Shown one piece after another: positions 1 to 24,839 of a DNA stretch of 26,469 nt. The stretch is from Chrysophaeum taylorii. Lineage: Eukaryota; Sar; Pelagophyceae; Pelagomonadales; Pelagomonadaceae. Below the pieces are notes generated by a model. That model was not told the DNA's origin, searched no databases, and worked only from the letters and a program-made list of their open reading frames with translations. The position numbers were made by a program, and so were the translations under genes. Every line of letters begins with the position of its first letter. Within the stretch, counting starts at the first letter, position 1. Where the stretch lies: assembly GCA_029834535.1 (NCBI GenBank), contig JAQMWT010000354.1:1-26469 (forward strand), written 5' to 3'.

Positions 1-77
1 AGTATGGAAGCGACCGTAGACGTTTGAGCGAGAATCTGGGGGATTGCTGTACGTACGTCTCGAGTTCGGATCCTGTT

Positions 78-455: not shown

Positions 456-483
456 TTCGGCCGATCTTTTTTTGAAGTAAGGT

Positions 484-2180: not shown

Positions 2181-2229
2181 GGACCGTCGACCGCGACGGC
2201 GCGTCCGCTATCTATGGATTATGCGCGAC

Positions 2230-2506
2230 GCCCTCCTTCTCACTACGCCCGCCGCCACCCCGGCGCCTATTGTCTATAATGAAATACTCCATTAAACAAA
2301 GCGGCCATCCGCCATCTCATAGTCCATCTCATAGTCCATCCGCAAAAAAAGCTCAGCCGAAAATAAACAGGCATAACGCTAACCCCCAGAACGCTTCGCG
2401 CAACGGAAAGGAAGGAAAAGGGTACCCACCCTAACCCAAGAACGAAAAAATGCGCAGAAATCTTCAAGAACCGAAAAGACAGAATTTCTGGTTCGCTGGC
2501 CCACCT
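2230..2506. other. Unassigned spacer
   Basis: Composition drops sharply from the GC-rich block to ordinary sequence. A short doublet (catctcatagtc, twice) lies near 2312-2337. I see no gene or clear element end here. Confidence 0.4.
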
Positions 2507-4351: not shown

Positions 4352-4364
4352 GTCCCGCGTACTT

Positions 4365-4599
4365 ATCTCTGCCCGTCAGGCACATCCATCATACCCCACA
4401 ACCCCACCCACATCTTTCATGCTCCCCACACACACCCCCCTCTTAGCAGTCGACATTTAACGACAGACAGACAAATCTCTGCCCGTCAGGCACATCCCTC
4501 ATACCCCACAAACCCACCCACATCCTTCATGCTCCCCACACACACCCCCCTCTTAGCAGTCGACATTTAAAGACAGACAGACAAACAAACAAACAAACA
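4365..4599 (+). repeat. LINE 3' tail: 110-bp tandem duplication plus (ACAA)n
   Basis: A unit beginning atctctgcccgtcaggcaca occurs at 4365-4474 and again at 4475-4584, a period of 110 bp with few differences. Each unit ends in gacagacagacaa. After the second copy the tract becomes acaaacaaacaaacaaac to about 4599. It follows the ORF stop directly, so it is best read as the 3' untranslated tail of the truncated LINE. Confidence 0.65.
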
Positions 4600-4639
4600 T
4601 CTGTCGATTAGTAGTTAGGATGTCGACAAGTGCAGGCCA

Positions 4640-5012
4640 GTAAGTTCACCTAGTCCCAATCTCCAACCCCAGAATTTTCACCCCGCTAAGTTCACCTAGT
4701 CCCAATCTCTAACCCCAGTAAATTCGGCGTAAACCCAATCTCTATAGTTCGGCGTAAACCCACACCCACTCACCCCACTCTCCTTTGAGCTCGTCGCTCT
4801 CACCCCCGCCAATCTAAGCTGCTTTGACCCGCACACGCCGCTAAGCTTTGAGTTTATTCTAAAAGCCCCAGTAAGTTTGCACTTGGTCTCAGTAAGTTCA
4901 CCTGGTCACTAAGTTCACCTAATCCCAATCTCTAACCCCAGTAAGTTCACCTGGTTCCAGTAAGTTCACCTGGTCCCAGTAAGTTCACCTGGTCCCAGTA
5001 AGTTCACCTACA
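4640..5012 (-). repeat. Short-repeat array at outer end of left arm
   Basis: About ten copies of a unit close to agtaagttcacctggtccc, regularly spaced at 19 bp from about 4941 to 5012 and more dispersed from 4640 to 4930. The complement of the same array lies in the right arm. On the helicase-coding strand the array follows the helicase end. Confidence 0.7.
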
Positions 5013-5044
5013 GTGCGCGTGTAGACGCCGTGAGGGGGCTTATC

Positions 5045-5640
5045 GGTATTGCGCAGCACGTGTGGGGTAGGGTGGAGTCGTCGACCCAGATGAGTATATC
5101 CTCGGGGATGCCGATCGACAGAGAGCCACGTAGAGCTGGACGTGGCAGAAGACGGGCTTCGCCAAGAGGACGCCGACCTCGCAGGGCGTCTGGCCCTGGC
5201 TCTTGTTGATCGTTTGGCGTAGGCGGGCCTTAAGGGATACAGGTTGGAGGAGCCTCGGTGACACGACACGATCGATCATGTATCTGGTACCGTTGCAGTG
5301 GCCGTGCGACGGGTCGAGGTTGCGAAGACATTAAGCTCGCGATCAAAGTCAGCATGCCGTTGGTTGTCAGGGAGTTGAAAACTCTACTGTAAAGAGCGAG
5401 GCGTCGTCTTCCGACCCAGCCTAGTCAGCCGAAAAGAACTCCGACGCCTCGTCTCCGGGAAAAAAGGCCGCGGTCATGCGCGCGTTGTCATCGACAACAT
5501 CGTTTCGACGGGGCGTGAGAATGGCGCGCTGAAAGAGCCGCCGCGGGTCGTGGAAATAGTCTGCGAGGTCGCCGTAGACGGCTTGGAGGATCACTGTCTG
5601 GCCCTCGCGCCTACCTGATCCTTACTCTCGCGCCTACCTG
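5045..5640 (-). pseudogene. Helitron/PIF1-type helicase, C-terminal fragment (left arm)
   Basis: On the minus strand this reads through helicase landmarks in order: RAILTPRRNDVVDDN near 5530-5490, FNSLTTNGML near 5370, CNGTRYMIDRVV near 5300-5270, TINKSQGQTP near 5215, and VFCHVQLYVALCRS near 5140. Helitron helicases have closely similar strings in this order, ending in the TINKSQGQ and LYVALSR motifs. The segment between FNSL and CNGTRYM is shortened and stops interrupt the upstream part, so it is a relic. This arm keeps TINKSQGQ-to-LYVAL in one frame; the other arm has a frameshift there. Confidence 0.72.
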
Positions 5641-5672
5641 ATCCTTACCCTAAATCGAGGGACAGACAAATA

Positions 5673-5749
5673 AACAGACAACCAGACAAACAGACAAACA
5701 TCTGTCGATTAGTAGTTAAGACTGCTAAGAGGGGGGTGTGTGTGGGGAG
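5673..5749. repeat. Central spacer of the inverted repeat, made of LINE-tail pieces
   Basis: The spacer joins a direct copy of the LINE tail end (5692-5718, matching about 4591-4617) to an inverted copy of the 110-bp tail unit (5721-5749, matching 4422-4450 and 4532-4560 in reverse complement). Both orientations of the neighbouring LINE tail therefore meet at the centre. Confidence 0.65.
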
Positions 5750-5782
5750 TCTGTTTGTTTGTCCCTCGATTTAGGGTAAGGA

Positions 5783-6340
5783 TCAGGTAGGCGCGAGGGC
5801 CAGACAGTGATCCTCCAAGCCGTCTACGGCGACCTCGCAGACTATTTCCACGACCCGCGGCGGCTCTTTCAGCGCGCCATTCTCACGCCCCGTCGAAACG
5901 ATGTTGTGCTGACAACGCGCGCATGACCGCGGCCTTTTTTTCCCGGAGACGAGGCGTCGGAGTTCTTTTCGGCTGACTAGGCTGGGTCGGAAGACGACGC
6001 CTCGCTCTTTACAGTCGAGTTTCCAACTCCCTGACAGCCAACGGCATGCTGACTTTGATCGCGAGCTTAAAGTCGTCGCAACCTCGACCCGTCGCACGGC
6101 CACTGCAACGGTACCAGATACATGATTGATCGTGTCGTTGTCACCGAGGCTCCTCCAACCTGTATCCCTTAAGGCCCGCCTACGCCAAACGATCAACAAG
6201 AGCCAGGGCCAGACGCCCCGCGAGGTCCGCGTCCTCTTGCCCACAAGCCCGTCTTCTGTCACGTCCAGCTCTACGTGGCTCTCTGTCGATCGGCAACCCC
6301 GAGAATATGCTCTTCTGAGTCGACGACTCCACCCTACCCC
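5783..6340 (+). pseudogene. Helitron/PIF1-type helicase, C-terminal fragment (right arm)
   Basis: Inverted copy of the left-arm fragment. It reads RAILTPRRNDVV near 5873, FFPGDEASEFF near 5935, CNGTRYMIDRVV near 6105-6135, and LKARLRQTINKSQGQTP near 6170-6220. After that the frame diverges from the left arm (LPTSPSSVTSSSTWLSVDR), so the LYVALSR-like motif is out of frame. It is a second, more damaged copy of the same helicase end. Confidence 0.68.
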
Positions 6341-6394
6341 ACACGTGCTGCGCAATACCTATAAGCCCCCTCCCGGCGTCTACACGCGCACTGT

Positions 6395-6705
6395 AGGTGA
6401 ACTTACTGGGACCAGGTGAACTTACTGGGGTTTGAGATTGGGACTAGGTGAATATAGTGACCAGATGAACTTACTGGGACCAGGTGAACTTACTGGGGGT
6501 TTTAGAGTAAACTCAAAGGTTAGCGGCGTGTGCGGATCAAAGCAGCCTAGATTGGCGGAGGCGAGAGCGACGAGCTCGAAGGAGTGGTGTGAGCACGAGT
6601 GGGTTTACGCCGAACTTACTGGGGTTAGAGATTTGGACTAGGTGAACTTACTGACCAGGTGAACTTACTGGGGTTAGAGATTGGGACTAGGTGAACTTAC
6701 TGGCC
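6395..6705 (+). repeat. Short-repeat array at outer end of right arm
   Basis: Copies of a unit close to gggaccaggtgaacttactg, the complement of the array at 4640-5012, spread over the last 310 bases of the arm. Flanking copies vary between accagg and actagg. Confidence 0.68.
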
Positions 6706-6746
6706 TGCACTTGTGCTCTCTAAAATTCGAATAAAAGTACAAGTTT

Positions 6747-6842
6747 TGTGAGGAAGATATGACACTTACCCCTGCACCACGTATCCAGTATCCCTACGTC
6801 ATTCCCTTATCGCTAATGTAACGCCCCATTCCAATTGTCACA
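6747..6842 (+). repeat. Copia 5' LTR
   Basis: 96 bp, TGTGAGGAAG...TTGTCACA, with a perfect terminal inversion TGTGA/TCACA. Preceded by AGTTT at 6742-6746. Very short for a copia LTR. Confidence 0.85.
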
Positions 6843-6857
6843 TGGTACAGGTGCTCG
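6843..6857 (+). promoter_or_regulatory. Candidate primer-binding site
   Basis: tggtacaggtgctcg begins immediately after the 5' LTR. It starts with TGG, the complement of a tRNA CCA end, and resembles the initiator-Met type site of copia elements only in its first bases. The tRNA is not identified. Confidence 0.45.
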
Positions 6858-6974
6858 TTCACGATCGAGCCTGTGCTTGGCTTCGTGGCGACTCCTTCTC
6901 GGCTTCAGTTCATTGCTACGTGTTCGGTTCGTTGTCGTCTATCATGTCCTCGATCGAAATTCAAGCTAGAAAGC

Positions 6975-7035
6975 TTTCGCAAAAAAAAACTTGATGCCTA
7001 GAAAGCTTTCGCAAAAAAAAAACTTGATGCCTTCA
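6975..7035 (+). repeat. Tandem pair of an A-rich 35-bp unit
   Basis: Two copies of a unit starting with gcctagaaagctttcgc and followed by a run of A then cttgat lie side by side, with different A-run lengths. A C run (7052-7063) follows shortly. This stretch between LTR and gag has no gene. Confidence 0.55.
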
Positions 7036-7214
7036 GCGGTGAGCGACACCCCCCCCCCCCCACCAATGGACACGTCGTCTTGAGAACATGATCATCTCTA
7101 CCGGCGATCACATTATCTCGACCAACGATCCTTGGACTAGCATCTCAGCATCTCGCTGCTCTGAAGAAGAATTTCGCGTCAAGCAACAACGTTGATATCC
7201 GTGAAAACCGCGAC

Positions 7215-7735
7215 ATGAACTTCACGCGGCTTTACAAGCGCATTACCGATGTCTACATGGGCCACGGGGACCGCGTAGCTCCATCCGCTATTGCTTCACT
7301 GCACTCTATTGCTTCACTGCACTCACTGGTGTGCAACCATATTGATGATCTTGCGATCTTCCTCAACAAGTCCATCACCGGAGTTCAAGTTGCTCGGCAT
7401 TGTACCTGATCCGACGTACCCTCGAGTGTGTCCTCGCATTTGACTACGTGCATCGTGCTTCAAGACTTACTGGCTTTGTTTTATCGTCTCGCGTTTCGTA
7501 CCGACGAATGTGGTTGTACCCTTGAGAAGCTCAACAACAAACAATTTAGATGGCATGCACAACCACTACCATCGCGTTATCCGCCGCGTCGTCAGCCACA
7601 ACCCCGACTCCAGACTCTTCCAACTGACCTACCCTAGACGCCCCCCTTTCCCAACAACCTGGCTCTACTCGATTCCGACGCACTACCCAATGTCATTTTG
7701 GCGGCTGCAAGGATCACTTTAAGAGGGACTGCCGC
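7215..7735 (+). pseudogene. Copia gag-like relic with damaged zinc knuckle
   Basis: The first frame (7215-7409) encodes about 64 residues, including ASLHSIASLHS from a 17-bp direct duplication, then stops. Similar weak coding continues in other frames to 7640. At 7691-7732 a third frame reads CHFGGCKDHFKRDC. This fits the gag knuckle pattern C-x2-C-x4-H-x4-C at positions 1, 9 and 14, but the second Cys position holds Gly. It lies where gag should be, but stops and frame changes show it is dead. Confidence 0.5.
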
Positions 7736-7765
7736 AAGTTTCAAAGTTCCTAGTTATTCCACGAC

Positions 7766-7864
7766 AACGCCCTACCCACCATCGCCGTTCTTCTCAACAA
7801 CTCCCTACCCACCATCGCCTTTCTTCTCAACATCTCCCTACCCACCATCGCCGTTCTTCTCAAC
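7766..7864 (+). repeat. 33-bp tandem repeat, three copies
   Basis: Three copies of a unit near aactccctacccaccatcgc plus ttcttctcaac. The period is a multiple of three and one frame reads TPYPPSPFFST per unit, so it could have been a Pro-rich linker of the copia polyprotein. A C/A-rich simple stretch follows to about 7950. Confidence 0.7.
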
Positions 7865-8238
7865 AGCGCAACACTTCCAATGACTCCAAAAACACCCAAC
7901 AACACCAACCCACCAAAACCACCACCACAAAACCACCACCACTAACACTACCTTTTCTGCGCCTATGCCTACTCCAACCTTGACTGATTCTAGTTCCACT
8001 CCGCCGCTTTTCTCAATACCACCATCTATTACACCCCCTTCGCCGCCTTAAACGGCCACACCCAACGTCTCACATCCCCCTCCCGATACTCTGTCTTATC
8101 ACATTTGCACCTTTCTGCCAATCCAGATAATTCCAAGTCAACGTGTGTACCGCCGCTTGTCTGACGCAAGCACATCAACAACCCCATCCCACGGAAGCCG
8201 CTCGTTATGGATTTTATTTTAGCTCCCATTGCACAGGC

Positions 8239-8620
8239 GCCCTTCGTTCTGTATTTTCCGCTATTCGTTGCTCAACCCCTCGTTCTGTATTTTCACCTCG
8301 CCGTTGCTCCTCTCCCCGTTCTGTATTTTCACCTCGTCGTTGCTCACCTCCTCGTTCTGTATTTTCCCCTCGTCGTTGCCCCCCTCCTCGTTCTGTATTT
8401 TCCCCTCGTCGTTGCTCCCCTCCTCGTTCTGTATTTTCATCTAGTCGTTGCTCCCCTCCTCGTTCTGTATTTCGCCTATTCGTTGATCCATTCCTCGTTC
8501 TATATTTTCAGCTATTCGTCGATCCACTCCCCGTTGTGCATTTTCAGCTATTCGTTGATCCACTCCCCGTTGTGCATTTTCCCCTATTCGTTGATCCACG
8601 CCTCGTTGTGCTTGTCGGTT
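8239..8620 (+). repeat. 36-bp minisatellite, about 10-11 copies
   Basis: Units near gttgctcccctcctcgttct plus gtattttcccctcgtc repeat with a 36-bp period; one unit is 35 bp (near 8445-8480). The last units drift to gttgatccactccccgttgtgc. Because 36 is a multiple of three, an open frame persists across the array, giving PRSVFSPRRCSP-like or VLYFPLVVAPLL-like repeats. There are no unique spacers, so it is not a CRISPR array. Confidence 0.8.
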
Positions 8621-8639
8621 TTGGTAAAACCAGCGACTC

Positions 8640-9662
8640 ACGTTCTATCGCGCATTTCACCCGCCACAACTAAGCTGTGCCTGTCAATTTTTCGCGTGCG
8701 CACCTTTCGTGCTTCCTATGTGGTTGGATCGCTCATCTTCGGGATCCTGGACCGACGCTTCTTTGCTGTGTGATTCGGCTTCTTCATCTACGGTATCAAC
8801 ACAATGTTGTGGTTCTCCTTCGCGCACTATCGCCTTTTCGCTGCTTTTCTGACCTTTCAAATTCGGTTTTGCTATCGAAGTGAATTCCGTGCTCAGCACC
8901 CGCGACGCTATCTGCACTGTTCTTACGTGTCACTGCGACGCCATCTGCAACGTTCTTACGTGCCACCACTGTTTTGCCACTGTCGCCAACTTCTACCGCA
9001 GTCTATTCGAGTATGACGAGCAAAGATTGTCGCTTGCTCCTCCAACGTTGGCCCATATGGCAACTTCGTTCTTGCGAATGCGAAAACGGGCCACTTTCTT
9101 ATCTGCCACAGCAGGCTGGCATACAGCAGCCTGGTCTACCCGTGTTCGTTCCTTACAACGCTGGCGCGTCAGACGTCTTCCATCTTCGCGTATAGGACGC
9201 GGTCGTGCCTATGGCAACTTGCTCGCGCCACAACAACCAAACACCCACGTTCGCATCAAACCTCTTTACGCCTGTTTTTGATTCTGTCGACTCCGACCAT
9301 CGTCATAACCTGGTCACCATGCAACATACCTGCCCAAAGGCCACGTTCTCATCAGACGTCTGGTACACTGCCATCATATATACCAGCCTGTGTTCCCGCT
9401 CTCTTTGCCCCGCTGCGATTCTCAGTGGCAACAATCGCCTAACGCAAGTCTCCCTAGGCACTTTAAGTCGCTATTGTTCTTCAGACCTCGATTTTGCTGA
9501 CAGTTTCGCTTATCAGATTTCCTGCAATGTCAACCACCGAAGGAACTTCAACGTTGTTCCGACTTTCTCGAATCACGCTTCCAAGCTATCGTCTACTGTT
9601 GCCCCATTGTCACCTGTTCCTGCTGTTGCCCGATTGTCACCTGTTCTTCCGCTGTTGCCCCC
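8640..9662 (+). other. Decayed protease/integrase zone of the copia element
   Basis: Protease and integrase of a copia polyprotein should lie here, but I find no HHCC or DDE signature. Only short frames in changing phases are open. A 33-bp unit is tandemly doubled at 8904-8969 (gacgctatctgcactgttct and its near copy from 8937). Two related stretches near 9045-9130 and 9310-9400 encode a similar G-H-F/V-L-I string and may be an older duplication. Confidence 0.4.
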
Positions 9663-11578
9663 TTGCCCCCTGTGTTTGATGAGAATGCGCCGGTTTCACT
9701 GGGACTGATCACCCCATCACGCGAACCGACCATTCTACGAGCTCATGAACTCCGACGAACCAAAGAGAGAAAACAAAAAAAAAGTGCACAACAAAGTCGA
9801 GCCAACCAGAGCCGACAAAACAAAAGCATGCAAACACAAAGTCGAGCCAAACAGAGCCGACCGCGCACAGTCGCCAAAAGCGCACATTATGCAGAAACAG
9901 AACCTACTCGCGAAAGTACGAACCCAAATTCTGGCGTTTGTCCACAACGCACTGTCGATTCTGTATCATCCTGTCAATCCCTGTATGTTAATTATGCTAG
10001 CTTTCGTTTGTTAGTTCATTATGTCTTCCTTCCCCTCTGTCTCGCCCATACCCTTGTTGATCCCCAATCTGTCCACGCTTATTACTCTGCTTCCGAAGAA
10101 GCATCTCAATATTCTTACATTGATGACGGTGCTATCACTTCCCCTCATTTGCGCGACGCTCTAGCCCATCCAAATCCTGCACGCCGGTTACAAGCCATTG
10201 CCAAAGAATATCATTCCCTCGGTCAGCTCGGTTGCTTGGATGTTGTTTGCGTTCCTTCTACTTTTTCTGGCAACATCTGCACTTTGAAGTGGGTCCACCG
10301 CAAGAAGTATGAATCTGGCCGCTTCAAATCGCACAATGCTCATCTCGTTGTCCGCGGTTACACCCAGGTTCACGGCATTGCTTACCACGACACGTCCAGT
10401 CCTGTAGATGTCATCTCCGCTTTCATACAAGCTCCTGTCTGGAGTTGCCGTTCATGACTGGGATTTGCATATGTTGGATGTCGTCTCTGCTTTCATACAA
10501 GCCCCTGTCTGGCCACCCGAAGGCTATGCTCCCAGCCAACCCAAAGATGCCTCCAAACTCATTTCCAAACTCGGTCGCTCTTGGTACGGTTGCCCGCAAG
10601 CATGTCCCCACTGGTGGCTTTACTTATAACGCTTCCTTGTCAATGATTGTAGCTTTGTCCGAGATTCAATACCACGCTTTCCTTTTTGCGTTTTTCAAAG
10701 CCTCCCCACTTCCGTTGGTCTCCGCATTACGCGTAATCGCGCACGTCGCACGCTCGCTATCGACCAATCCCATGCTATCCGCGAAATCCGCACCGAACAT
10801 CGCTTCCTCAACAGTAAACCAGAATTGACTCCCGCTCCCAAAGGTCTTCATCTTCCTGCGGCTGATTGTCCTGCACCTGGCTCCCCTGCTCACGTCTTCA
10901 TGGCACGCATCCCTTTTCGTCGTATTGTCCGTTGTGCCTTGTTTATTTCTGTTATGACTCGCCCTGATATCACTTGTACCGTCAATCAGTGTGCGCGTTT
11001 TACAGACAATCCTGGTAAACCCTACTGGCACGCCATATCTCATACCCTCCGCTATCTCAATGGTACTCAAGATCTTGCCCTTGTTCTTGGTCGCGATTCC
11101 ACCCTTCGTCTCTGTGGTTATTCCGACTCCAGCTGGACCGACGACCCTGATGACCGCCACTCCACTACTGACTTTTGTTTTCGCCTTGCTGGCTCTATGA
11201 TATCCTACTGCTCACGCTCGCAGTACCTCCTCGCCCGCGCCTCTTTTGAAGCCGAATTGCTCGCTCTCTACGCCGCTACTGCTGAGCTCTCTTGGCTTCT
11301 CAAACTTTTTGATGACTTTGATCTCCCTCGTCACACGGCACCTATCTCCCTCGTCACACGGTACCTATGTATGTCGATAACAGCACCACCGTCACGCAAG
11401 TCCGTCTCCAATGTCTCACGAGGCGCACCCGCCACATTGACATTCGGTTTTACAGCACCGCCGAATATCATCGCAATCACATCATTGATCTCCAACACAT
11501 TCCCCGCCTTGACACTCTCAGCGATATCTTCACCCGTAGTACGGAAGCTCCTCGCTTCCTTCGGCTTCGAGCTCCTTA
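9663..11578 (+). pseudogene. Copia reverse transcriptase/RNase H relic
   Basis: The frame 9663-10457 carries a Lys/Gln-rich linker, then the N-terminal RT: HPNPARRLQAIAKEYHSLGQ, TLKWVHRKKYESGRF and HLVVRGYTQVHG. A second frame from about 10470 continues LDVVSAFIQAPVWPPEGY and SKLGRSWYG. The catalytic YVDD region is missing: sequence jumps from about 10680 to the post-palm part (GLRITRNRARRTLAIDQ). Frame 1 from 10825 to about 11345 then gives VMTRPDITCTVNQCARF, YLNGTQDLAL, STTDFCFRLAGSMISYCSRSQ and the RNase H string ASFEAELLALYAATAELSW. A 23-bp tandem duplication (about 11319-11365) shifts the frame to YVDNSTTVTQ...DIFTRSTEAPRFLRLRAP, the usual copia end, stopping at 11578. It is inactive. 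Confidence 0.82.
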
Positions 11579-11675
11579 GCTCACCTCGTGACTTCGCATG
11601 GCATCTCCTGTCTTCTTCTGCCACAATGCCTCTCATGACGTCTTTTTCCACCTTCAAGCTTCTCCTCTGTGAGCG

Positions 11676-11777
11676 CCTCACTTACCCCTTTTTCCTTTTC
11701 TTTCTTTTCCAGCACCTGTGTGACGGCCTCACTTACCCCTTTTTCCTTTTCTTTCTTTTCCAGCACCTGTGTGAGGA
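11676..11777 (+). repeat. 51-bp tandem duplication abutting the 3' LTR
   Basis: The unit cctcacttaccccttttt plus a pyrimidine run and ccagcacctgtgtga occurs at 11676-11726 and 11727-11777. The second copy runs into the first bases of the 3' LTR, and the first copy also ends with tgtga. The tract is pyrimidine-rich on the coding strand, where a polypurine tract would be expected. Confidence 0.7.
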
Positions 11778-11865
11778 AGCTATGACACTTACCCCTGCAC
11801 CACGTATCCAGTATCCCTACGTCATTCCCTTATCGCTAGTGTAACGCCCCATTCCAGTTGTCACA
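11770..11865 (+). repeat. Copia 3' LTR
   Basis: 96-bp partner of 6747-6842, with three single-base differences by eye. Followed by AGTTT at 11866-11870, matching the 5 bp before the 5' LTR. Confidence 0.85.
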
Positions 11866-11870
11866 AGTTT

Positions 11871-12053
11871 AGTCAACCAAGATACGGATTGACCGAACTT
11901 AAGTGACCAAACTTGTTGAGGGTTTACGGCGACCAAACATATATGGTGGTTGGAAACTTGACTTTCCCCTTTCTAAAATGAAAGGTGGTAAAGTTAAGTG
12001 AACTAACCCTAGAATAGGGGGGTACTAACCCTAGTTCAGATTTTCTATCTCTA
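11871..12053. other. Spacer between copia and gypsy element C
   Basis: AT-richer sequence with recurring small words (gaccaaac, aagttaagtg, taaccctag). Homology to element A starts at about 12054 (cgaataaaccgcc). The spacer has no open frame of interest and may belong to the ancestral target or another element end. Confidence 0.4.
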
Positions 12054-12088
12054 CGAATAAACCGCCACGAGGGTGGGGAGGTCGAGCT

Positions 12089-13042
12089 ATGGCCTCCGAT
12101 CAACAAGCCAAGCAAGATGCGGATAAACCGTCTGGGAATACGGATCCGCTGATTTTACGAGATCCTTCTTGGTGGTGCAAGAAGACGTGCAAGGACTGCG
12201 GATTCTTCTGGACCATCCATGATGAAGATGAACACGGAAATCGCGTGGTTTGCAACCGCGATCCGGACCGTTATTACTGTGCGATGTGGAAGCGCATTCG
12301 AAAGCAGAAGAAGCAACCCATATCGCGTTCCGATTTGGAGAAGCGTGATGATGCATCTCATGCGAACGCCACGCGCGGATCGGAGCCTTCTTATGAAATT
12401 CAAACGGCCCTCACCGAGCTTGGAACCACAATGGCGACCATGGTGAGCGAGGTCAGAGGTATCAAGGATAGCAAATCGTCTTCTACACGACAGCGAGACG
12501 GACGATCGCCTCCTAGACGATCGTCGCGCCGACATCGAAGCAAGAGCCCTGATCGAAAGGCCAATACTCCTCAAACCAGCCCGAGTCCGCGCCGTCGCCG
12601 CCATAGCCGGAGCTCTAGTCGCAATTCGCGCTGGCGCAGACGTCATCGACAGCGCGATGACGAATATGACAGAGGCCGATATCAGGATAGTTCGGGACAT
12701 TCGAGCGCAACTTTCGCGTTCCAATCTTTATGCGACGCGCCGCCATCGTCGGGAGTTGTCTTTTACCCGACGGCGCGCCCCGCCCGAGTCTCCGATGATG
12801 TTGCCGATGTCGCTGTGACGAGCAGCCATCGCTTGCAACAGGAGCAAAATACCACCAACGCGCGGATCGTTCGGTGGCTTTCTACATTGTATGTGGAAGC
12901 AATATCAAATGCCACTTTGGATTCTCCGCACTACTGGGAAGACTCAGACTCGGAGACCGACGAACCCATGCCGCAGGTTCCAGTGTCCCCCCATTCGTCA
13001 ATGTGCATGTCTTGCAGGGCAGTTCACGATGATGACGTTTGA
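12089..13042 (+). CDS. Gypsy Gag C-terminal part: zinc motif and RS-rich domain (element C)
   Basis: The product is structural: Gag packages element RNA in a particle. It matches the end of element A's Gag, where the frame is continuous upstream, so this start Met is internal to the original protein. Near residues 30-55 lies a CKDCGFFW...H...H...VVC motif (C-x2-C-x6-H-x4-H-x5-C), a plausible nucleic-acid-binding zinc site unlike the usual CCHC knuckle. Residues about 125-195 are rich in Arg-Ser pairs (RSPPRRSSRRHRSKSPDRK), like SR splicing factors. An acidic stretch (WEDSDSETDEP) lies near the end. Relative to element A's copy, one C fewer in a C run near 12990 changes the last 15-20 residues. 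The 5' part of gag is missing, so this is a fragment. Confidence 0.7.
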   Translation: MASDQQAKQDADKPSGNTDPLILRDPSWWCKKTCKDCGFFWTIHDEDEHGNRVVCNRDPDRYYCAMWKRIRKQKKQPISRSDLEKRDDASHANATRGSEPSYEIQTALTELGTTMATMVSEVRGIKDSKSSSTRQRDGRSPPRRSSRRHRSKSPDRKANTPQTSPSPRRRRHSRSSSRNSRWRRRHRQRDDEYDRGRYQDSSGHSSATFAFQSLCDAPPSSGVVFYPTARPARVSDDVADVAVTSSHRLQQEQNTTNARIVRWLSTLYVEAISNATLDSPHYWEDSDSETDEPMPQVPVSPHSSMCMSCRAVHDDDV

Positions 13043-17035: not shown

Positions 17036-17481
17036 CGTGGTGGAGTACACGAGATCGTGCGACTACATCGGTCGCCGAGAGCGAGTGCTGCCGTACGTTT
17101 TGTATTACGAGGTCCGGATTTGTACGTGAGCCCTGATGAAGCACACGGAGTTCCATTGGACCGGTTTGCCATTGGACCGGTTTGCGTTGAGAATATACGC
17201 GAACGTTGTTTGTGTTCGTACGATCCGAGTGACGACGAACACGCGTGCGAGTTGGAAATCGCAGCGCATTCTCCCGGGAATTGATGTTGGTATAGCTGAA
17301 CGGTGGAAGCTGTTTAGCGAGTGGGATCGCTACCCACGGGCGTTTTTGAATTGCCAGCGGATTGGAATTCCGTGAGTGCTATTTTTACAGCGACAGATAG
17401 CGTTGTTGGAATCAACGTGAATTATTTCGAGTGATCGGATCCGGACGTGTTTCGAGATTCTTGATCGAAATTTGATACAGT
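17036..17481 (+). promoter_or_regulatory. Leader of element A with candidate primer-binding site
   Basis: tggtggagtacacgag at 17038-17053 starts two bases after the LTR end and has the TGG start expected for priming by a tRNA CCA end; the tRNA is not recognised. A 16-bp word (ccattggaccggtttg) is tandemly doubled near 17153-17185. No coding region precedes the gag start at 17482. Confidence 0.45.
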
Positions 17482-19089
17482 ATGGAGATAAACGCAGACG
17501 TGCGTGAGGAAGAATCTCCTCCAGTTCTTCCCGCCGCCCCTGAGATAGGCCGCGAGGAAGGTGAATTAAGAGAGGCCGAGGCAGTCGACGTTGCTGACGT
17601 GCCCCCTGATGTGCCTCCGGATGCTGCCATTTTTTCGCCGTTGAGTACAACGACTCCGGATCGTGGCGAGCGTGTTACTATTGAGCGCGGATCTGCAGCC
17701 CGAAGTCGACTTCGTGAAGACCTCGAGCGGAGACGTCGCGAAAATGAACGATTAGCTGAGCTTTTTGCTCGTGAAAGGGCTGAAGCGAAAGAGGAAGCGG
17801 CTCGACGAGAAGTTGATATGCTCAATGATGCATTACAACAAGAGATTGAGACCTCGAAGACCCTACGCGAAGAGGCTGAACGATTTCGTCGTGAACGAGA
17901 TGAATTGTTAGCCGAACGTACGCGTCGGGAGAGTAGCCGCGAACGACCCGTGAATCGACCCGAACCGGAAACGTCCGTGAGGCCGCCTGAACCGGAAAGG
18001 AACACTGAAACGGGGAATGAACCTCCGCCCCGAGTCGATACGGAGAATGAGGGTAGGGCGGACATTGAGAATGAAAGTACGAAAATTTTACGGGTATTAT
18101 CGCGGGGAATATCGCAGACGGTTGCCAACGCCTTCGAAAAGGGCAACTTGAGCCGATCCCATCGACCCACTTCCAGTTTGAAGCCTGATAACTTCAAACT
18201 CGTCATCGACGGCCGAGACCAACGGCAATTTAATTTGGATTCGGCGGCGATGATGCATACTTTAGCAGATGACCATTAATCGGTCGAGAAATTACGTTAC
18301 TTACTACCTGTGCATCTACGGGGCACCGTTGCACCAATTTTTGAGGAACACTTGCAGAAATACGAGGAGCTCTGCGATGAGCTACCACACGGTCCGTCGT
18401 TTTACTTGAAATTAGATACTGACGATGAAGAGCATGGAGTCTCGGTTCGTCGTATCCGTCGTCTTAACAAGACGTATTGCGACAAGATTTTGGATTATTT
18501 TAGATCGACTTGCCGACCTCCGCGCACGCAACAGGAGCTGCTTGACAAGCTGCGGAAGGTCACCCAGGCTTCAGTTCCGAAGAAGTCTGGGGAGCGGCAC
18601 GTCCAAACGTATTGTACCGGATTCCAATCTGATGCCTTGGAGTTTTGTTCCGTGTCCAGCCGCACGATGGATGATGTCGATATCCTCGACCAGCTTATCA
18701 GTGGATTGACGTCCAAGGAGTTGAGGACCCGTGTGCGGACTATGAGGAGCGGACATCCTGATAGTTACGTGACTTTTAAGTCGATGGTAGCGCTTATTAC
18801 GCGGCTCGAGAACGACTTACGAAAGTTGATGGAGGAGGAGAAGGACCAAGGCCCTCCTAATCCGAAATCGAATAAACCGCCGCGAGGGCGGGGAGTTCGA
18901 GCTATGGCCTCCGATCAACAAGCCAAGCAAGATGCGGATAAACCGTCTGGGAATACGGATCCGCTGATTTTACGAGATCCGTTTTTGTGGGGCAAGAGAA
19001 CGTGCCCGCACTGTGGGTTCTTCTGGACCACCCATGATGAAGATGAACACGGAAATCGCGTAGTTTGCAACCGCGATCCGGATCGTTAC
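17482..19089 (+). pseudogene. Gypsy Gag of element A, N-terminal and middle part
   Basis: Gag forms the particle that carries element RNA. The reading frame runs from Met at 17482 (gatacagtatggag) with one in-frame TAA at 18277-18279, then on to the insertion point at 19089. Residues 1-60 are acidic and Pro-rich. Residues about 72-155 are a long charged helix with coiled-coil character (RRRENERLAELFARERAEAK). Residues about 270-460 look like the helical gag capsid (LDYFRSTCRPPRTQQELLDK, VDILDQLISGLTSKELRTRV). Residues 508-529 hold a zinc motif, C508-x2-C511-x6-H518-x4-H523-x5-C529. The C-terminus lies beyond element B, at 24840-25589. The stop codon and the insertion make it inactive. Confidence 0.8.
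19085..19089 (+). repeat. Target-site duplication of element B, left copy (GTTAC)
   Basis: GTTAC directly before the TGTGGCG start of element B. The same five bases follow its CGCCACA end at 24835-24839. The uninterrupted sister gag in element C (near 12270) has a single copy of the equivalent site. Confidence 0.9.
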
Positions 19090-19229
19090 TGTGGCGTAAG
19101 GAGAATTTTAGGGGCTACCTGGCGTGCCTTCGAATCCTGGCTCGCCGCTCGCGTCCGTGCCCTTGGTGGGGTCACTGGACGAGGATGGCCGTTCTCCCGC
19201 CGCCCGACCACAAACAACTCCCGTGCCTG
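19090..19229 (-). repeat. 140-bp terminal inverted repeat, left copy
   Basis: Perfect reverse complement of 24695-24834 over 140 bases, checked base by base. Since 24695-24834 is the end of the 3' LTR, this left copy is an inverted LTR fragment, not a 5' LTR. Confidence 0.95.
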
Positions 19230-20371
19230 TCGCCACTCAAGGCGAAGTCCTTGCGATTGGCGATATCGTTAGGTACGAAGATGAGTTGAACGTCTCTACG
19301 ATCAACGAACTTACGAAAGAGTGTGAAGAAGGATACGACAAGGGGAGCCTTTCTTTCACCGTTTCTGTCGCTAGTCACTTGACGCGATGGGACGAATCTC
19401 CCCCGCCGATGCTGCTGAGCACGGTGCAGAAGGACGCTACGACCGCTATGGCGGACAAGTCCACCCTCAAACGACCTGAAGGCAGCGACGATTTCGCTCG
19501 AAGGTCGGAAGAAGATGAAAAGAAATGCCGCGAGATCACCGAAGCGGAGATCCGCCGCCGATATGAAAAGGTTCAATGGCTTCCAATCACTTATCGCAAG
19601 GTGGTGATGCTGTTCAGTGGAGCCGGAGGCAGTACTTTAGGTCTCCAACGAGCCAACGAAACGTGTGGGACGTCGTTTCGAGTCGTGGTAGCACTCGATG
19701 CGTCGGACACCGCCAACCAGATCCACCACAAGAACTTTCCGAATATTCCTGTGGTGCAGCACACACTGTGTGGTCGCTCTGTTACAACCTTACGGTTGAT
19801 CGAATCTTATTTACCCTACGCGGAATGGTCGTCGTCGATGTGTGTCGCGTCGCCACCCTGCGTACACTCCGCTCTGTGCAACTTGACCTCCAGAGATGTT
19901 GGGAAAGGAGTCACCGCTACCCACTGGACGATGAAATTATGCAAGATGGCTGGTTTCTTCATGTGGTTGATAGAGCAGGAGGCTTCGATTATTTCTTACG
20001 TTGCACGTTTGCACCCTTACGTGTGCGTCGTCAATTTCTACGACATAACTCCCAGTTTGATGAGCTGTCGCGTGCGATTGTTGGTTTCCAGCCATCCGCT
20101 CCATTTGCGCGCAGTTCCAAAGACTTGCAAGAATATGCAGCAAGAGTTCGCCGCAGCACTTGGCTACGCCGACGAACGACATTTACTTCAGATGAACAAT
20201 TTAGGATCATCACGAGCTGCGACAGACGCAGCTTACACCGTTACGCGTGTCCCGCTTCGCGTAGGACCGCACCGTTCCGATTACAGATCTCTGAATCTGA
20301 AAATGACTTCGGAGTTGCTGACGATGCCCCCTGATTTGATTGGGCCGGCTTCTCCAGGACGACCTCGTTGA
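19124..20371 (+). CDS. C5 cytosine DNA methyltransferase domain of element B
   Basis: Predicted to transfer a methyl group from S-adenosylmethionine to C5 of cytosine in DNA. Motifs in order: I, VVMLFSGAGGSTLGLQRA (FSGAGG at residues 164-169); II/III, VVALDAS...HHKNFPNIPVV; IV, VASPPCVHSALC with catalytic Cys246; a THWTMKLCKMAG helix; VI, WLIEQ with Glu284 in place of the usual ENV; VIII, SCRVRLLVSS (Arg316, Arg318); IX, RSLNLKMTSELLTMPPD ending near residue 404. Motif X (HLASVVPP) lies in the next frame, after a one-base shift near 20335. The first 35 codons read inverted LTR sequence, so original coding begins at about 19230. Residues 36-160 (GDIVRYEDELN...) are unassigned. It is compact, with no long target-recognition domain visible, and continuous except for the shift. 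Similar enzymes in algal and dinoflagellate retrotransposons are known from the literature (memory). Confidence 0.82.
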   Translation: MPSNPGSPLASVPLVGSLDEDGRSPAARPQTTPVPVATQGEVLAIGDIVRYEDELNVSTINELTKECEEGYDKGSLSFTVSVASHLTRWDESPPPMLLSTVQKDATTAMADKSTLKRPEGSDDFARRSEEDEKKCREITEAEIRRRYEKVQWLPITYRKVVMLFSGAGGSTLGLQRANETCGTSFRVVVALDASDTANQIHHKNFPNIPVVQHTLCGRSVTTLRLIESYLPYAEWSSSMCVASPPCVHSALCNLTSRDVGKGVTATHWTMKLCKMAGFFMWLIEQEASIISYVARLHPYVCVVNFYDITPSLMSCRVRLLVSSHPLHLRAVPKTCKNMQQEFAAALGYADERHLLQMNNLGSSRAATDAAYTVTRVPLRVGPHRSDYRSLNLKMTSELLTMPPDLIGPASPGRPR

Positions 20372-22773
20372 AACACTTGGCGTCCGTCGTGCCACCTGAC
20401 ACGATAGCCTTATTAGTGCTCGATCTGCACAACTCTGTGACCAAGGAATTTCACCTGAGCGGCGAAGCTTTGCCGTCAGCGTTGAGTCCTGCAGACCGAC
20501 CGTTTGATTATTATTTGCAAATTGATGAAACCACCCTTCGTCACGTACAAGTTCCGCTGTTAAACACGCGCACACGTGTCGTAAGATGGGTGTCGACTGA
20601 TGATCTCCAAGATCGCACCAAATGGAAACCTCCAGAGGTACCGTTGATTCCGCCTGCAACAGATGAGCCGGGGACGTCTCATGCTTCTTCTGCTGGGCCC
20701 CCCGGACAACCAAATTTAGACGTTCCGCCAGATCCTGAGCGAGATCGGGAACCGAAGATTAAGAGCGAGCCGAGTGTTCGTGTCAAAGGCGAGAGGACCA
20801 ACAAAAGCCACCCGGAAGTGAGACTAAAATACGAGAAGAAGTTCGATGTGCCATGGAAAGATGCGCCGCGCGATGCTGAGGGTGCACCGCTGCCGCAAAC
20901 TCCCGAGCATGTCAAGGATAACGAAGTGATGAAAGTGAAAATTCCTACGAAGGAAGAAGTTGACAAGGTTGTCCAGGAGCTTGGAATTCCTGACAATCCG
21001 CACTTAGATGACGATGCGAAACTGATGCTCCGTCACTGTGTGCAATATTATTGGGCCTTTTTCGACCCGACTATGAGACCTGTGGACTCGCCTCCTATGA
21101 CTCTACGATTCAAAGACGCAAATCCGCGACCGATTAAGATGACGCCCTACCGACTGACGCCTGCGAAGCTCGACTGTCTCCGCAAGCAGATCAGCGAGTG
21201 GTGCCGGGATGGAGTCATTCGTCCGGCCAACTCACCTTGGGGCTTTTCCGTGTTGATGCTTCCGAAGAAAGGAGCTGAGATTGGAACGTCAAACGCGTTC
21301 CGTGCTGCAGTTGACTTACGTCAGCTCAACGATCAATTGGTCAATGACAGTTGGCCAAACATTCGACAAGATGATGCTTTAGCCTTTCTCGGGATGAGAC
21401 GATGGCGGACATGCATTGATATTAGATGGGGATACCACAACCTTCGTCTGGATCCGGCAGCGCAGGACGCTGTCACGATGGTTAGCCCACTTGGCGCTCA
21501 TAGTTTCTTGCGATTACCTCTAGGTGTGAAGACGGCCGGAGCTCTTTTCTGCAAGCAAATGGCGAGCGACCTTTCGAAATGGATGTATCAAGACTTGGTT
21601 GCGTTTGTTGACGATATTATGATGGGATCCGACGATCTTCATCGACATTTACAAGTTTTGATCGAAGTGATGTGTCATTTGGCACAGAGAGGGTACAGCG
21701 GTCGAACCGCGAAGTTCCACCTTCTCAAGGATGATATAGAATTTCTGGGACACATTTCTACCCCAGAAGGCTTGAAGCCGAATCCGAAGACGTTGGAAGC
21801 ACTGCAGAAGATGCCGATTCCAGGTACTTTACCGAATACTTCCCCGAAGACCCAGATACGCTCTTTCATCGGCATGAGTAATGACTGCCGGCGATATGTG
21901 AAGGGCTACTCGAAGATTGTGGAACCGTTGAGACGATTATGCCTCGAAGGTGTAAAGTTCGAGTGGACGCCCGAGTGTCAGAAAGCTTGGGATACGATTA
22001 TTGAAGCTTTGGTTGATTCCCGTGGAGTCTACCACGCCGATTATGATCTGCCTTTTCAGATCCGATCCGACGCTTCCAAGGATGGACTTGGAGCATATCT
22101 CTTCCAGATTGTCGAAGTCAAGGACGATGCCGGAAGAGTGACTCGAGAAGAACGAGTGATTGAATACTGGAGCCGAGCTGTGCCGAAGGAGATGCGGAAT
22201 TATGAGCCCCGTCGGCTAGAGCTGCTGGCAGTTATACTTTCTCTAGAGCACTTTCGAGCCTACATCGAAGGGCACCGTACTGTTTTGGAGACCGATCACC
22301 GAAATTTGACGTTTTTACGTAAGGCGACGCACTCGTCCGGGCAGCTTGCTCGTTGGGCGATGCGCCTCGCCAATTTTGACCCTGAACTTGGTTACAAGCC
22401 GGGAAAGTCACCGGGAATGAGTATCCCTGACTGTCTCTCCCGCAATCCGATAGATCATGTCATCGAGACTGACGAGTTTGGAGAACCTTTGAACCACGCG
22501 TATTTAGTGTTCCAAGAGCTTCCCCGACCTGTTGATGACCGAGGAGTTCCCGTCTCCGGCTGCCACTTCATAATGTCGTTTATTACGACCGAACTGCCGG
22601 AAGACGAAGACGAAGACCCTGAAAAGGATCCGATGAAATTGGCTACGTCTCACGCTACGAGACAACGTCGGAAGAACCGTGCGCGCGATGAGCCACAGAT
22701 CTTCAAGGACGCAGCCGCTTACAAAGATTATATCGATAAGATACCCGATAATATGACGCTCGCTAATATCTGA
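20338..22773 (+). CDS. pol: Pol: methyltransferase motif X, linker, reverse transcriptase and RNase H
   Basis: Makes cDNA from element RNA and degrades the RNA strand. The frame opens at 20335; no natural start Met is needed if it was fused to the methyltransferase. Residue numbers count from 20368. Residues 2-10 are KHLASVVPP (methyltransferase motif X). A charged linker runs to about 220. RT starts near 250: RPIKMTPYRLTP, GVIRPANSPWGFSVLMLPKK, RAAVDLRQLND, TCIDIRWGYHNLRL, FLRLPLGVKTAGALFCKQM, and catalytic FVDD at 413-416. RNase H follows with Asp568 (RSDASKDG), Glu618, Asp643 (ETDHRNL) and Asp688 (PDCLSRNP). The protein is about 800 residues, with typical gypsy spacing and no internal stop. 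It ends at TGA 22771-22773, one base out of frame with integrase. Active-site residues are complete, so it may be recent. Confidence 0.93.
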   Translation, partial: DWAGFSRTTSLKHLASVVPPDTIALLVLDLHNSVTKEFHLSGEALPSALSPADRPFDYYLQIDETTLRHVQVPLLNTRTRVVRWVSTDDLQDRTKWKPPEVPLIPPATDEPGTSHASSAGPPGQPNLDVPPDPERDREPKIKSEPSVRVKGERTNKSHPEVRLKYEKKFDVPWKDAPRDAEGAPLPQTPEHVKDNEVMKVKIPTKEEVDKVVQELGIPDNPHLDDDAKLMLRHCVQYYWAFFDPTMRPVDSPPMTLRFKDANPRPIKMTPYRLTPAKLDCLRKQISEWCRDGVIRPANSPWGFSVLMLPKKGAEIGTSNAFRAAVDLRQLNDQLVNDSWPNIRQDDALAFLGMRRWRTCIDIRWGYHNLRLDPAAQDAVTMVSPLGAHSFLRLPLGVKTAGALFCKQMASDLSKWMYQDLVAFVDDIMMGSDDLHRHLQVLIEVMCHLAQRGYSGRTAKFHLLKDDIEFLGHISTPEGLKPNPKTLEALQKMPIPGTLPNTSPKTQIRSFIGMSNDCRRYVKGYSKIVEPLRRLCLEGVKFEWTPECQKAWDTIIEALVDSRGVYHADYDLPFQIRSDASKDGLGAYLFQIVEVKDDAGRVTREERVIEYWSRAVPKEMRNYEPRRLELLAVILSLEHFRAYIEGHRTVLETDHRNLTFLRKATHSSGQLARWAMRLANFDPELGYKPGKSPGMSIPDCLSRNPIDHVIETDEFGEPLNHAYLVFQELPRPVDDRGVPVSGCHFIMSFITTELPEDEDEDPEKDPMKLATSHATRQRRKNRARDEPQIFKDAAAYKDYIDKIPDNMTLANI

Positions 22774-24448
22774 TGCTACTTGCGAGGATATTCGCTACCG
22801 AATGGCCCAAGGTCAGACGCCGCGACGTTCCCGAGCGAACGAACGATTCGAAGTCGTTAAAGATGTTCTTTACCGCATTTCTGCTGATTTGCACCCGATG
22901 ATTGTTGCACCTGCTACTTTGCGCAAGCGCATTATTCGACTCTATCATGACACTCCGGTTAACGGTGGTCATATGGGACGTCACAGTACCGTCCAGGCTA
23001 TCCAAGAACGATTTTGGTGGCCTCACATGTCGAACGAAGTTGGAGTCTTCATTGCTGAATGCTTAGTTTGTCAGAAAGCTCGTACGCCTGAGCCGAAACG
23101 AGCTGGACTCTTGCAACAGCCCGTCTACGATGGTGATGGTGCTGTTCTTTGCATGGATTTATTTGGACCCTTGCCCAGCGCTGGTCCCGAGACGTATCTT
23201 CTAGTATTTTTTGATCCGTTCTCGCATTTCTTGATTCTGGGTGTTTTGAACGATAAGACTGCTGAGTCTGTCCTCGAGTCTTTTGTCATTAACATTCTCC
23301 TCAAGGGCTACTTGCCCCAGATGATTCGTACCGACAACGGTAAAGAGTTCGTGAACAAGTTGATGCGCGAGTTCTGCCATCTCTTTAACACCCGATACCA
23401 AACTACGATTCCTTATCATGCCCAGTCGAACCCGGCTGAGCGCGTCAACCGATTTATCAAGGCCTTCCTCCGTGCTTGCCTTCAAGGCCGGAACATCACG
23501 GATTGGCCTGACTTTGCTCATTATATTGCGTTTTGCTACAACCGCAAGTTTATTCCAGGCACGCAGATATCTCCCTTTATGCTGCGCCTGAACCGTCAGC
23601 CGATGCTGCCGACTGACTACACGCTCATGGATTTTGATACACGATTATTGCCGAAGACTCGCTCTGATGCAGTCGCCGAGACTCGCGAACGATTGAAATA
23701 TTATACAAAGATCGTCCGCGAAGCTCGTGATAAAGCTTCGAAGAAACAGCGATTGGCTTACAATGCTGATCATGTTGATGTTGAATACAAGGAAGGATCG
23801 CACGTTTTGCTCTACATTCCTTTCCTTCAGAACAAACTTCGACCGGAATGGCGAGGGCCGTTTATTATCAAGGAACGCTTCTCCCCGGTCACCTATAGGA
23901 TTGAGTCTCTCGACTCTCCGCCCGAAAAACGACGTGTTCATGTTAGTCAGATCACGCCTGTGATGGTACCTCCGATCGTTGATCAAACCATCCGCAAACC
24001 CGAAGAAACCTTCCGTGATGATTATCAGCACGGTAAGTTTGTTGTTTTCCGGATTCCTGACCGGAAGCGCTCTGATTGGCGCAAGAAGATTTATGTTGCC
24101 GAAGTTTACGAGCCTTACGATTACCAAAATGATCGTGTTGCTCTACATTTCTATTCCGATTTGGGTCCGAACGATGATGTCGCTTATTTCAAGCCGACCT
24201 CTCACCTTTCGCACCGCAAGCTCAAGCCCGAGTTCAAGGACGTTGAAGGTCGAAGTTTCACCGACAAGTCCCGAATTTCCTCCAACACAACTCCCTGTGT
24301 CACGGATTTCGCTCCGCACGAGATTGACGTGTTGATACCCAAGTTTACTTTACGCAGTGGTCGAGTTCCTGAACCGATCATCACCCGCGTTTACCAGAAG
24401 ATTCGTTCACGAGATGCTCGTAAGGCGAAGCCGCGCTCCTCGCGCTAG
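22772..24448 (+). CDS. int: Integrase with GPF/Y module and C-terminal extension
   Basis: Inserts element cDNA into the genome. The frame opens in phase 2 directly at the preceding TGA; the first Met is at 22802 (residue 1 below), but the normal product is probably fused to RNase H by frameshift. The N-terminal zinc finger is H49-x7-H57-x29-C87-x2-C90. The catalytic core is D119 (MDLFGPLP), D178 (RTDNGKEF) and E213 (NPAERVNRF), with 35-residue D-to-E spacing as in retroviral integrases. The GPF/Y module starts at W350-R-G352-P-F354. After about residue 410 an extension of some 140 residues (KFVVFRIPDRKRSDW, KIYVAEVYEPYDYQ, VALHFYSDLGP) may be a small beta-barrel chromatin- or nucleic-acid-binding domain. 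It lacks an obvious chromodomain. No internal stop; ends TAG. Confidence 0.93.
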   Translation, partial: DATCEDIRYRMAQGQTPRRSRANERFEVVKDVLYRISADLHPMIVAPATLRKRIIRLYHDTPVNGGHMGRHSTVQAIQERFWWPHMSNEVGVFIAECLVCQKARTPEPKRAGLLQQPVYDGDGAVLCMDLFGPLPSAGPETYLLVFFDPFSHFLILGVLNDKTAESVLESFVINILLKGYLPQMIRTDNGKEFVNKLMREFCHLFNTRYQTTIPYHAQSNPAERVNRFIKAFLRACLQGRNITDWPDFAHYIAFCYNRKFIPGTQISPFMLRLNRQPMLPTDYTLMDFDTRLLPKTRSDAVAETRERLKYYTKIVREARDKASKKQRLAYNADHVDVEYKEGSHVLLYIPFLQNKLRPEWRGPFIIKERFSPVTYRIESLDSPPEKRRVHVSQITPVMVPPIVDQTIRKPEETFRDDYQHGKFVVFRIPDRKRSDWRKKIYVAEVYEPYDYQNDRVALHFYSDLGPNDDVAYFKPTSHLSHRKLKPEFKDVEGRSFTDKSRISSNTTPCVTDFAPHEIDVLIPKFTLRSGRVPEPIITRVYQKIRSRDARKAKPRSSR

Positions 24449-24485: not shown

Positions 24486-24659
24486 TCCTGTGGCGGCAAC
24501 TCCCGCCTCCTAAGGCTTACCCCTCTTCTAGCCCCCCCCCTTATCAGGGGCACCCTACTCCGTTCTGATGAGGTCAGTGTTCTCTATGACATCATCTTCC
24601 TATCTTCCTTTTCCGTGACATGCGTCACCCTGATTTCTGATTTTCGATATATCCTTGAT

Positions 24660-24666
24660 CATAAAG
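24660..24666 (+). promoter_or_regulatory. TATA-like box in the LTR
   Basis: cataaag lies 29-35 bases before 24695, the point where the inverted LTR copy begins. If 24695 is the transcription start (start of R), the spacing is typical of a TATA box. Weak on its own. Confidence 0.3.
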
Positions 24667-24674
24667 CAACAGCC

Positions 24675-24695
24675 GGTCCTCAAGTTGTGAGGACC
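24675..24695. other. Perfect 8-bp-stem hairpin at the inverted-repeat boundary
   Basis: ggtcctca-agttg-tgaggacc: a perfect 8-bp stem with a 5-base loop. Its last base is the first base of the 140-bp inverted repeat. Confidence 0.75.
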
Positions 24696-24834
24696 AGGCA
24701 CGGGAGTTGTTTGTGGTCGGGCGGCGGGAGAACGGCCATCCTCGTCCAGTGACCCCACCAAGGGCACGGACGCGAGCGGCGAGCCAGGATTCGAAGGCAC
24801 GCCAGGTAGCCCCTAAAATTCTCCTTACGCCACA
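24695..24834 (+). repeat. 140-bp terminal inverted repeat, right copy
   Basis: The last 140 bp of the 3' LTR; perfect reverse complement of 19090-19229. Confidence 0.95.
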
Positions 24835-24839
24835 GTTAC

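What the first reader, a model, noticed from the sequence alone, without database searches (positions are those of the whole stretch)
19230..20450. Retrotransposon that carries its own C5 cytosine DNA methyltransferase
Seen: FSGAGG, SPPC, Glu, RVR, LLTMPPD and VVPP motifs in the order of C5 methyltransferases, directly upstream of and in line with gypsy RT. Known: retrotransposons with captured cytosine methyltransferases have been reported in a charophyte alga and a dinoflagellate (recalled, not checked). Inference: the enzyme might methylate the element's own cDNA or insertion site and so hide or protect it. The position between protease and RT inside the polyprotein could deliver it into the particle.
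Basis: partly seen in the sequence, partly recalled or inferred. Interest (0 to 1): 0.92.

Follow-up and report, generated by a model that had tools for sequence, protein, structure and literature searches.

The report
Jumping gene with built-in DNA methyltransferase
An algal retrotransposon family carries its own cytosine-methyltransferase-like enzyme inside its replication polyprotein, and related elements found in other transcriptomes and metagenomes have kept the same enzyme, so it probably does a job in the element's life cycle.

Summary

The window copy is 5'-truncated, capped by an inverted LTR end, flanked by a 5-bp duplication, and sits in another element's gag. Complete copies of about 10 kb (LTR-gag-PR-MT-RT-RH-IN-LTR) exist in the same algal genome; two have one frame of about 3,060 codons. 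At least 150 MT matches are present.

MT is under purifying selection (dN/dS 0.15-0.18). MT-bearing elements fall in one RT clade, and MT and RT trees show no supported conflict: most simply one old capture, then co-inheritance. The nearest published case, KnitGypsy-Dnmt3, has a Dnmt3-type enzyme; here the nearest solved sequences are DNMT2, DNMT1/CMT and bacterial enzymes.

Most likely the enzyme methylates the element's cDNA. This is inferred. Unusual catalytic motifs leave other substrates, or loss of activity, open.

The parts
17476..19084 (+). gag-like coding region of another, related element into which the MT element inserted; a stop at 18277-18279 splits it; it resumes at 24840
   Evidence: uninterrupted paralogue at 12035-13039
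19085..19089 (+). left target-site duplication GTTAC
19090..19229 (-). inverted copy of the last 140 bp of the LTR, capping the 5'-truncated element
19230..19555 (+). truncated PR-to-MT linker (begins at the VATQGEVLAIGD stretch; other copies read VVTQGEVLAIGD)
19556..20460 (+). C5-cytosine methyltransferase domain; motif I 19613, IV (PC) 19850, VI (Glu) 19964, VIII (RVR) 20063, IX 20315, X (VPP) 20380 in the next frame after a frameshift
21262..21756 (+). reverse transcriptase RVT_1
   Evidence: PF00078 E 1.7e-12
22039..22377 (+). RNase H
   Evidence: PF17917 E 5.5e-26
22910..23950 (+). integrase: H2C2 zinc binding, rve core, p58 C-terminal module
24015..24448 (+). C-terminal domain after the integrase, seen by eye in relatives' polyproteins; no Pfam match over cut-off in four members tested (one at E 0.066)
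24489..24834 (+). 3' LTR, about 346 bp, TGTGGCG...CGCCACA
24835..24839 (+). right target-site duplication GTTAC
12035..13039 (+). uninterrupted paralogue of the gag reading frame, showing the unoccupied site type

Best explanation
The window holds a decayed copy of an LTR (Ty3/gypsy) retrotransposon family whose Gag-Pol polyprotein has a C5-cytosine methyltransferase domain between protease and reverse transcriptase. Shown: the domain's identity, its place in the polyprotein, its presence in many copies and in related families, purifying selection, and a history shared with the RT. Inferred: as part of Pol the enzyme is packaged with RT and integrase, and methylates cytosines of the newly made double-stranded cDNA (or the cDNA-integration complex) before or at integration. 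This would mark the DNA as 'self', shield it from nucleases or deaminases, or set the chromatin state of the new copy.
Against: No activity, methylome or packaging data. Residues next to the catalytic ones deviate: the residue after the catalytic Glu is Gln in 7 of the 10 rows of A1 (window included) and Asn in 3; Pro before the Cys is lost in 7 of 10 and kept in the window family, P0014 and P0053 (read). P0003, left out of A1, has lost motif I and the VPP of motif X by eye. The published KnitGypsy-Dnmt3 and SymbioLINE enzymes showed no activity in yeast, which the authors call inconclusive. No CpG excess of C/T differences and no CpG depletion in copies, so no sign of stable CpG methylation.
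Confidence: 0.55

Rival explanations
1. The MT is an active enzyme but acts on another substrate: the element's RNA or RNA/DNA hybrid, a tRNA primer, or host DNA and chromatin near the insertion.
For: The nearest single solved sequences are DNMT2, the tRNA methyltransferase, at a weak E of 0.035-0.039 over the motif I region. The residue after the catalytic Glu is Gln in 7 of 10 rows. PMC5890265 discusses RNA as a target for LINE DNMTs.
Against: The DNMT2 match covers only about 60-80 residues. DNMT1, DNMT3, M.HhaI and M.HaeIII folds score alike, so the fold does not choose the substrate.
Confidence: 0.22
2. The domain has lost catalysis and serves as a structural or nucleic-acid-binding part of Pol, kept for that.
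For: Motif I looks lost in P0003. Pro before Cys is lost in 7 of 10 rows. The PF00145 score of the window domain is borderline, and 3 of 10 family rows do not match PF00145 at E<=0.1.
Against: Cys, Glu, R-x-R and two motif I glycines are invariant in 10 of 10 rows that otherwise share only 24-33% identity with the window, which a mere scaffold would not need.
Confidence: 0.15
3. Recent capture of a host Dnmt3-like gene, as proposed for the charophyte gypsy element.
For: Same element superfamily and also in the Pol ORF (PMC5890265).
Against: The 12 MT-bearing elements found fall in one RT clade and MT and RT trees show no supported conflict, which fits one old capture. None of the 29 solved sequences matched by the family profile at E<=1 is named DNMT3. 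The K. nitens sequence itself could not be compared.
Confidence: 0.06
4. Chance motif pattern or misread frame, no methyltransferase.
For: Pfam PF00145 was just under its cut-off on the whole ORF.
Confidence: 0.01

Closest known systems
KnitGypsy-Dnmt3 of Klebsormidium nitens (de Mendoza et al. 2018, PMC5890265; abstract and sections 6, 9, 10, 11 and 15 read, passages of the rest)
   Same: Ty3/gypsy LTR retrotransposon with a C5-MT in the Pol ORF, key residues kept, Ka/Ks below 0.2
   Different: Its MT is described as Dnmt3-related and its repeat arrangement as DIRS-like. Here the MT is too divergent to class (profile matches DNMT2, DNMT1/CMT and bacterial enzymes), the LTRs are direct repeats in the copies compared, and the host is a chlorophyll-c-type alga. 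Sequences not compared.
SymbioDIRS-Dnmt3 and SymbioLINE-Dnmt of Symbiodinium (same paper)
   Same: Retrotransposons with captured C5-MTs in many copies; two SymbioDIRS enzymes active on CG in yeast
   Different: Tyrosine-recombinase DIRS or LINE elements, different RT class; no tyrosine recombinase (PF00589) match in this genome
Eukaryotic DNMT1/MET1/CMT, DNMT3 and bacterial M.HaeIII, M.HhaI
   Same: Fold and core motifs I, IV, VI, VIII, X
   Different: 11-20% identity in the structural alignments; Glu-Gln instead of Glu-Asn in the window family; a compact domain of about 290 residues inside Pol

Membership tests
C5-cytosine methyltransferase (PF00145 superfamily) | Motif I, catalytic Cys (IV), Glu (VI), R-x-R (VIII), motif X in order | tested here: met
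   in the window copy motif X lies in the next frame; relative P0003 lacks motif I by eye
C5-cytosine methyltransferase (PF00145 superfamily) | Profile score over the curated cut-off | tested here: inconclusive
   21.8 bits for the ORF and 22.8 for the cut domain against 22; 19.2 and 13.8 for two other copies' polyproteins; 7 of 10 family rows match at E<=0.1
C5-cytosine methyltransferase (PF00145 superfamily) | MTase fold shared with solved C5-MTs | tested here: met
C5-cytosine methyltransferase (PF00145 superfamily) | Transfers methyl to cytosine C5 in DNA | not testable with these tools
   needs an assay
Ty3/gypsy LTR retrotransposon | Order PR-RT-RH-IN with H2C2 and rve integrase | tested here: met
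   PR assigned by eye only
Ty3/gypsy LTR retrotransposon | Direct LTRs with TG..CA ends | tested here: met
   direct repeats of 338-341 columns at both ends in the three copies compared in full (C47, C5a, C9); the TG end is read in the window; the window copy has only the 3' LTR plus an inverted LTR end
Ty3/gypsy LTR retrotransposon | Short target-site duplication | tested here: met
   GTTAC on both sides of the window insertion; the unoccupied paralogue differs by one base there. Not established for the full copies
DNMT-retrotransposons of the KnitGypsy-Dnmt3 type | MT belongs to the Dnmt3 class | tested here: inconclusive
   no chain named DNMT3 among the 29 solved sequences matched at E<=1; no tree with Dnmt3 references could be built
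DIRS retrotransposons | Tyrosine recombinase | tested here: not met
   integrase is rve; no PF00589 match in the genome

The most novel reading that the evidence does not exclude
A Ty3/gypsy lineage spread through microbial eukaryotes captured a cytosine methyltransferase once, long ago, and has inherited it with its reverse transcriptase ever since, as a standard Pol enzyme and not as an accessory. During that time the active site was remodelled in most branches (Glu-Asn to Glu-Gln, Pro-Cys to Ser-Cys or Asp-Cys), so that it may modify an intermediate of reverse transcription, such as an RNA/DNA hybrid or one-stranded cDNA, and not ordinary genomic DNA.
Probability: 0.22. Interest if true: 0.85.

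Novelty: new variant of a known kind. Interest (0 to 1): 0.62.

Why it matters
Retroelements with captured DNA methyltransferases were reported as separate events in dinoflagellates and a charophyte. Here the enzyme marks what looks like a whole, old gypsy clade with several families in one algal genome and relatives in transcriptomes and metagenomes, and it scores near or below the Pfam cut-off of the model that the published survey used. If active, it gives a clean system to ask what DNA methylation does for a mobile element rather than against it, and whether particle-packaged methylation of cDNA exists.

Tried and rejected
Rejected: a retroelement with terminal inverted repeats as a new class. 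The inverted arms first looked like TIRs, but other copies carry the same sequence as direct LTRs, so the window copy is an aberrant 5'-truncated insertion with an inverted LTR end. Led nowhere: homologue searches with the MT of this family (0 hits among 1,777 candidates at E<=0.01; 0 among 3,467 at E<=1); viral contigs with P0053 and P0006 (no relative); phage records with the P0053 MT domain (no match); alignment A1 in the search for related loci (no conserved stretch). CpG decay as a proxy for methylation: C/T differences per site by next base were G 0.0274, T 0.0270, A 0.0242, C 0.0122 over 190 pairs of 20 copies, and CpG observed/expected is 1.21 in the element against 1.23 in window 1-12000; CpG C>T 0.0147 against non-CpG 0.0231 in MT. 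So no support. PF07727, PF00078 and PF00589 places were compared by eye with the second set of PF00145 places to find what carries it (the first two lists were capped): no consistent association. Motif X is counted from A2 (9 of 9), because in A1 the window row ends before motif X and its MPP is misaligned against the VPP of the others.

Full report
What is in the window. Pfam alone is weak: PF00145 at 21.8 bits against a cut-off of 22, motif I region only. Downstream lie RT and RNase H (20335-22773) and an rve integrase (22757-24448). The three frames overlap, so this copy is broken at both joints.

The unit. Arms 19090-19229 and 24695-24834 are inverted copies, identical over 140 bp (the script counts 141 matching positions from the outer side, one of which belongs to the duplication). 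GTTAC stands on both sides. The gag frame around it is uninterrupted in a paralogue at 12035-13039, where the site reads GTTAT. So a discrete piece inserted into another element's gag with a 5-bp duplication. A 141-base probe of the arm found 41 places (40 scored of 441 candidates), six contigs showing pairs on the same strand 8.6-10.2 kb apart. In the three copies compared in full the direct repeat is about 340 bp. The arm is thus the 3' part of an LTR, and the window copy is a 5'-truncated element with an inverted LTR end in place of its 5' half. I infer an aberrant reverse-transcription product, perhaps strong-stop DNA primed at the wrong place; this was not tested.

The family. The window's RT finds 56 scored places in the own genome (1,806 candidates), and the MT finds 150 scored places at 80-100% identity, some partial or with stops (941 candidates), so these are lower bounds. 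Of the 20 RT-picked copies all 20 gave an MT alignment, three of them (L012, L018, L020) with large gaps. Complete copies read LTR, gag, PR, MT, RT, RH, IN, LTR in about 10 kb; in two of the 11 looked at the whole polyprotein is a single frame, of 3,063 and 3,067 codons. Protease and gag were assigned by eye, not by Pfam.

Age and descent. In an RT tree of 121 rows the 12 MT-bearing elements and one without MT (P0015, whose protein starts after the MT position) form one clade with support 100, quick method. The program warns that a long branch (P0069) meets this clade, and P0015 implies a loss or a cut record. Only the 120 listed of 285 hits were in it. An 11-row MT tree and the matching RT tree show no supported conflict: five splits are shared, and one RT split (P0002 with P0003, P0007, P0008) is unresolved in the MT tree. 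In the own genome, P0053 (RT 30% identical to this family) finds 22 RT places (22 scored of 1,746 candidates), 20 with MT upstream; 10 of the 20 are not among the listed places of the window family. The relatives come from transcriptomes, one of Chrysocystis, Pelagophyceae (P0004), and from metagenome collections whose habitats I did not see. This fits one capture followed by long co-inheritance.

Selection. dN/dS in MT is 0.178 (11 copies, 55 pairs) or 0.151 (4 of 20 copies, whole domain without indels), in the range of RT pieces (0.108, 0.264) and RH (0.200) and below the linkers (0.235, 0.301). Pairs are not independent, and the RT figure rests on 3 copies only.

Host. The genome has 84 light-harvesting matches; the one tested is closest to proteins named LHCI, FCPI and VCPI in the solved structures, which I read as a chlorophyll-c lineage. 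With the pelagophyte relative this suggests an ochrophyte alga, perhaps a pelagophyte; it is not established.

How it may work. An enzyme inside Pol is made and packaged with RT and integrase, so its natural substrate is the cDNA. That step is inferred. De Mendoza et al. proposed the same for their elements and showed CG methylation in yeast for SymbioDIRS enzymes, with KnitGypsy inconclusive (PMC5890265). Against a standard DNA enzyme stand the Gln after the Glu (7 of 10 rows), the lost Pro before the Cys (7 of 10, not in the window family) and the loss of motif I in P0003. No CpG decay was seen.

Novelty. Six paper searches in a library of open PMC papers listed the 2018 paper and 13 others; one search listed none. 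Of the others I saw passages only of PMC12344493, PMC6338049, PMC12730594 and PMC9998398; the passages shown describe no MT gypsy clade of this kind, and the rest were not opened. PMC6338049 says in general terms that methylase-bearing gypsy and DIRS elements occur in stramenopiles and other algae, so the idea is not new. The 2018 survey searched with PF00145, a model this family scores near or below cut-off; what that survey found in this alga, if it was included, I did not see. I call it a new variant of a known kind.

Noticed in passing
window 19090-19229 and 24695-24834: The truncated insertion has two U5-type LTR ends, one inverted, and still a 5-bp duplication: integrase seems to have used two like ends.
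   Followed up: partly
own genome, 57 places: Besides Dnmt2 (L041) and one match in a 2,086-aa ORF (C621), 55 further PF00145 places score 25-46 bits over profile stretches within 12-175, in ORFs of 127-1,952 aa. None overlaps a listed place of the window family or, and by eye none lies close to a listed Copia RT match; there is no tyrosine recombinase match in the genome. What carries them is unknown.
   Followed up: partly
window 24015-24448 and polyproteins P0004-P0007, P0012-P0014, P0053: A C-terminal domain after the integrase looks conserved by eye across the clade and has no Pfam match over cut-off in four members tested; perhaps a chromatin reader.
   Followed up: partly
P0002 residues about 370-430, and P0007, P0008, P0012: A stretch between protease and MT (EPGRTYNLPVILSKPMERGQVFVA) resembles by eye the dUTPase-like beta fold (recalled); not confirmed by Pfam for P0002 and P0007.
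   Followed up: partly
window 9501-11844: Decayed Copia-type RT and RNase H by eye; Pfam gave no match for ORF 10630-11844.
   Followed up: no
window 8208-8638 and 4626-6721: 36-bp tandem repeats inside an ORF, and a large imperfect palindrome built of CAGTAAGTTCACCTGGTC-like units.
   Followed up: no
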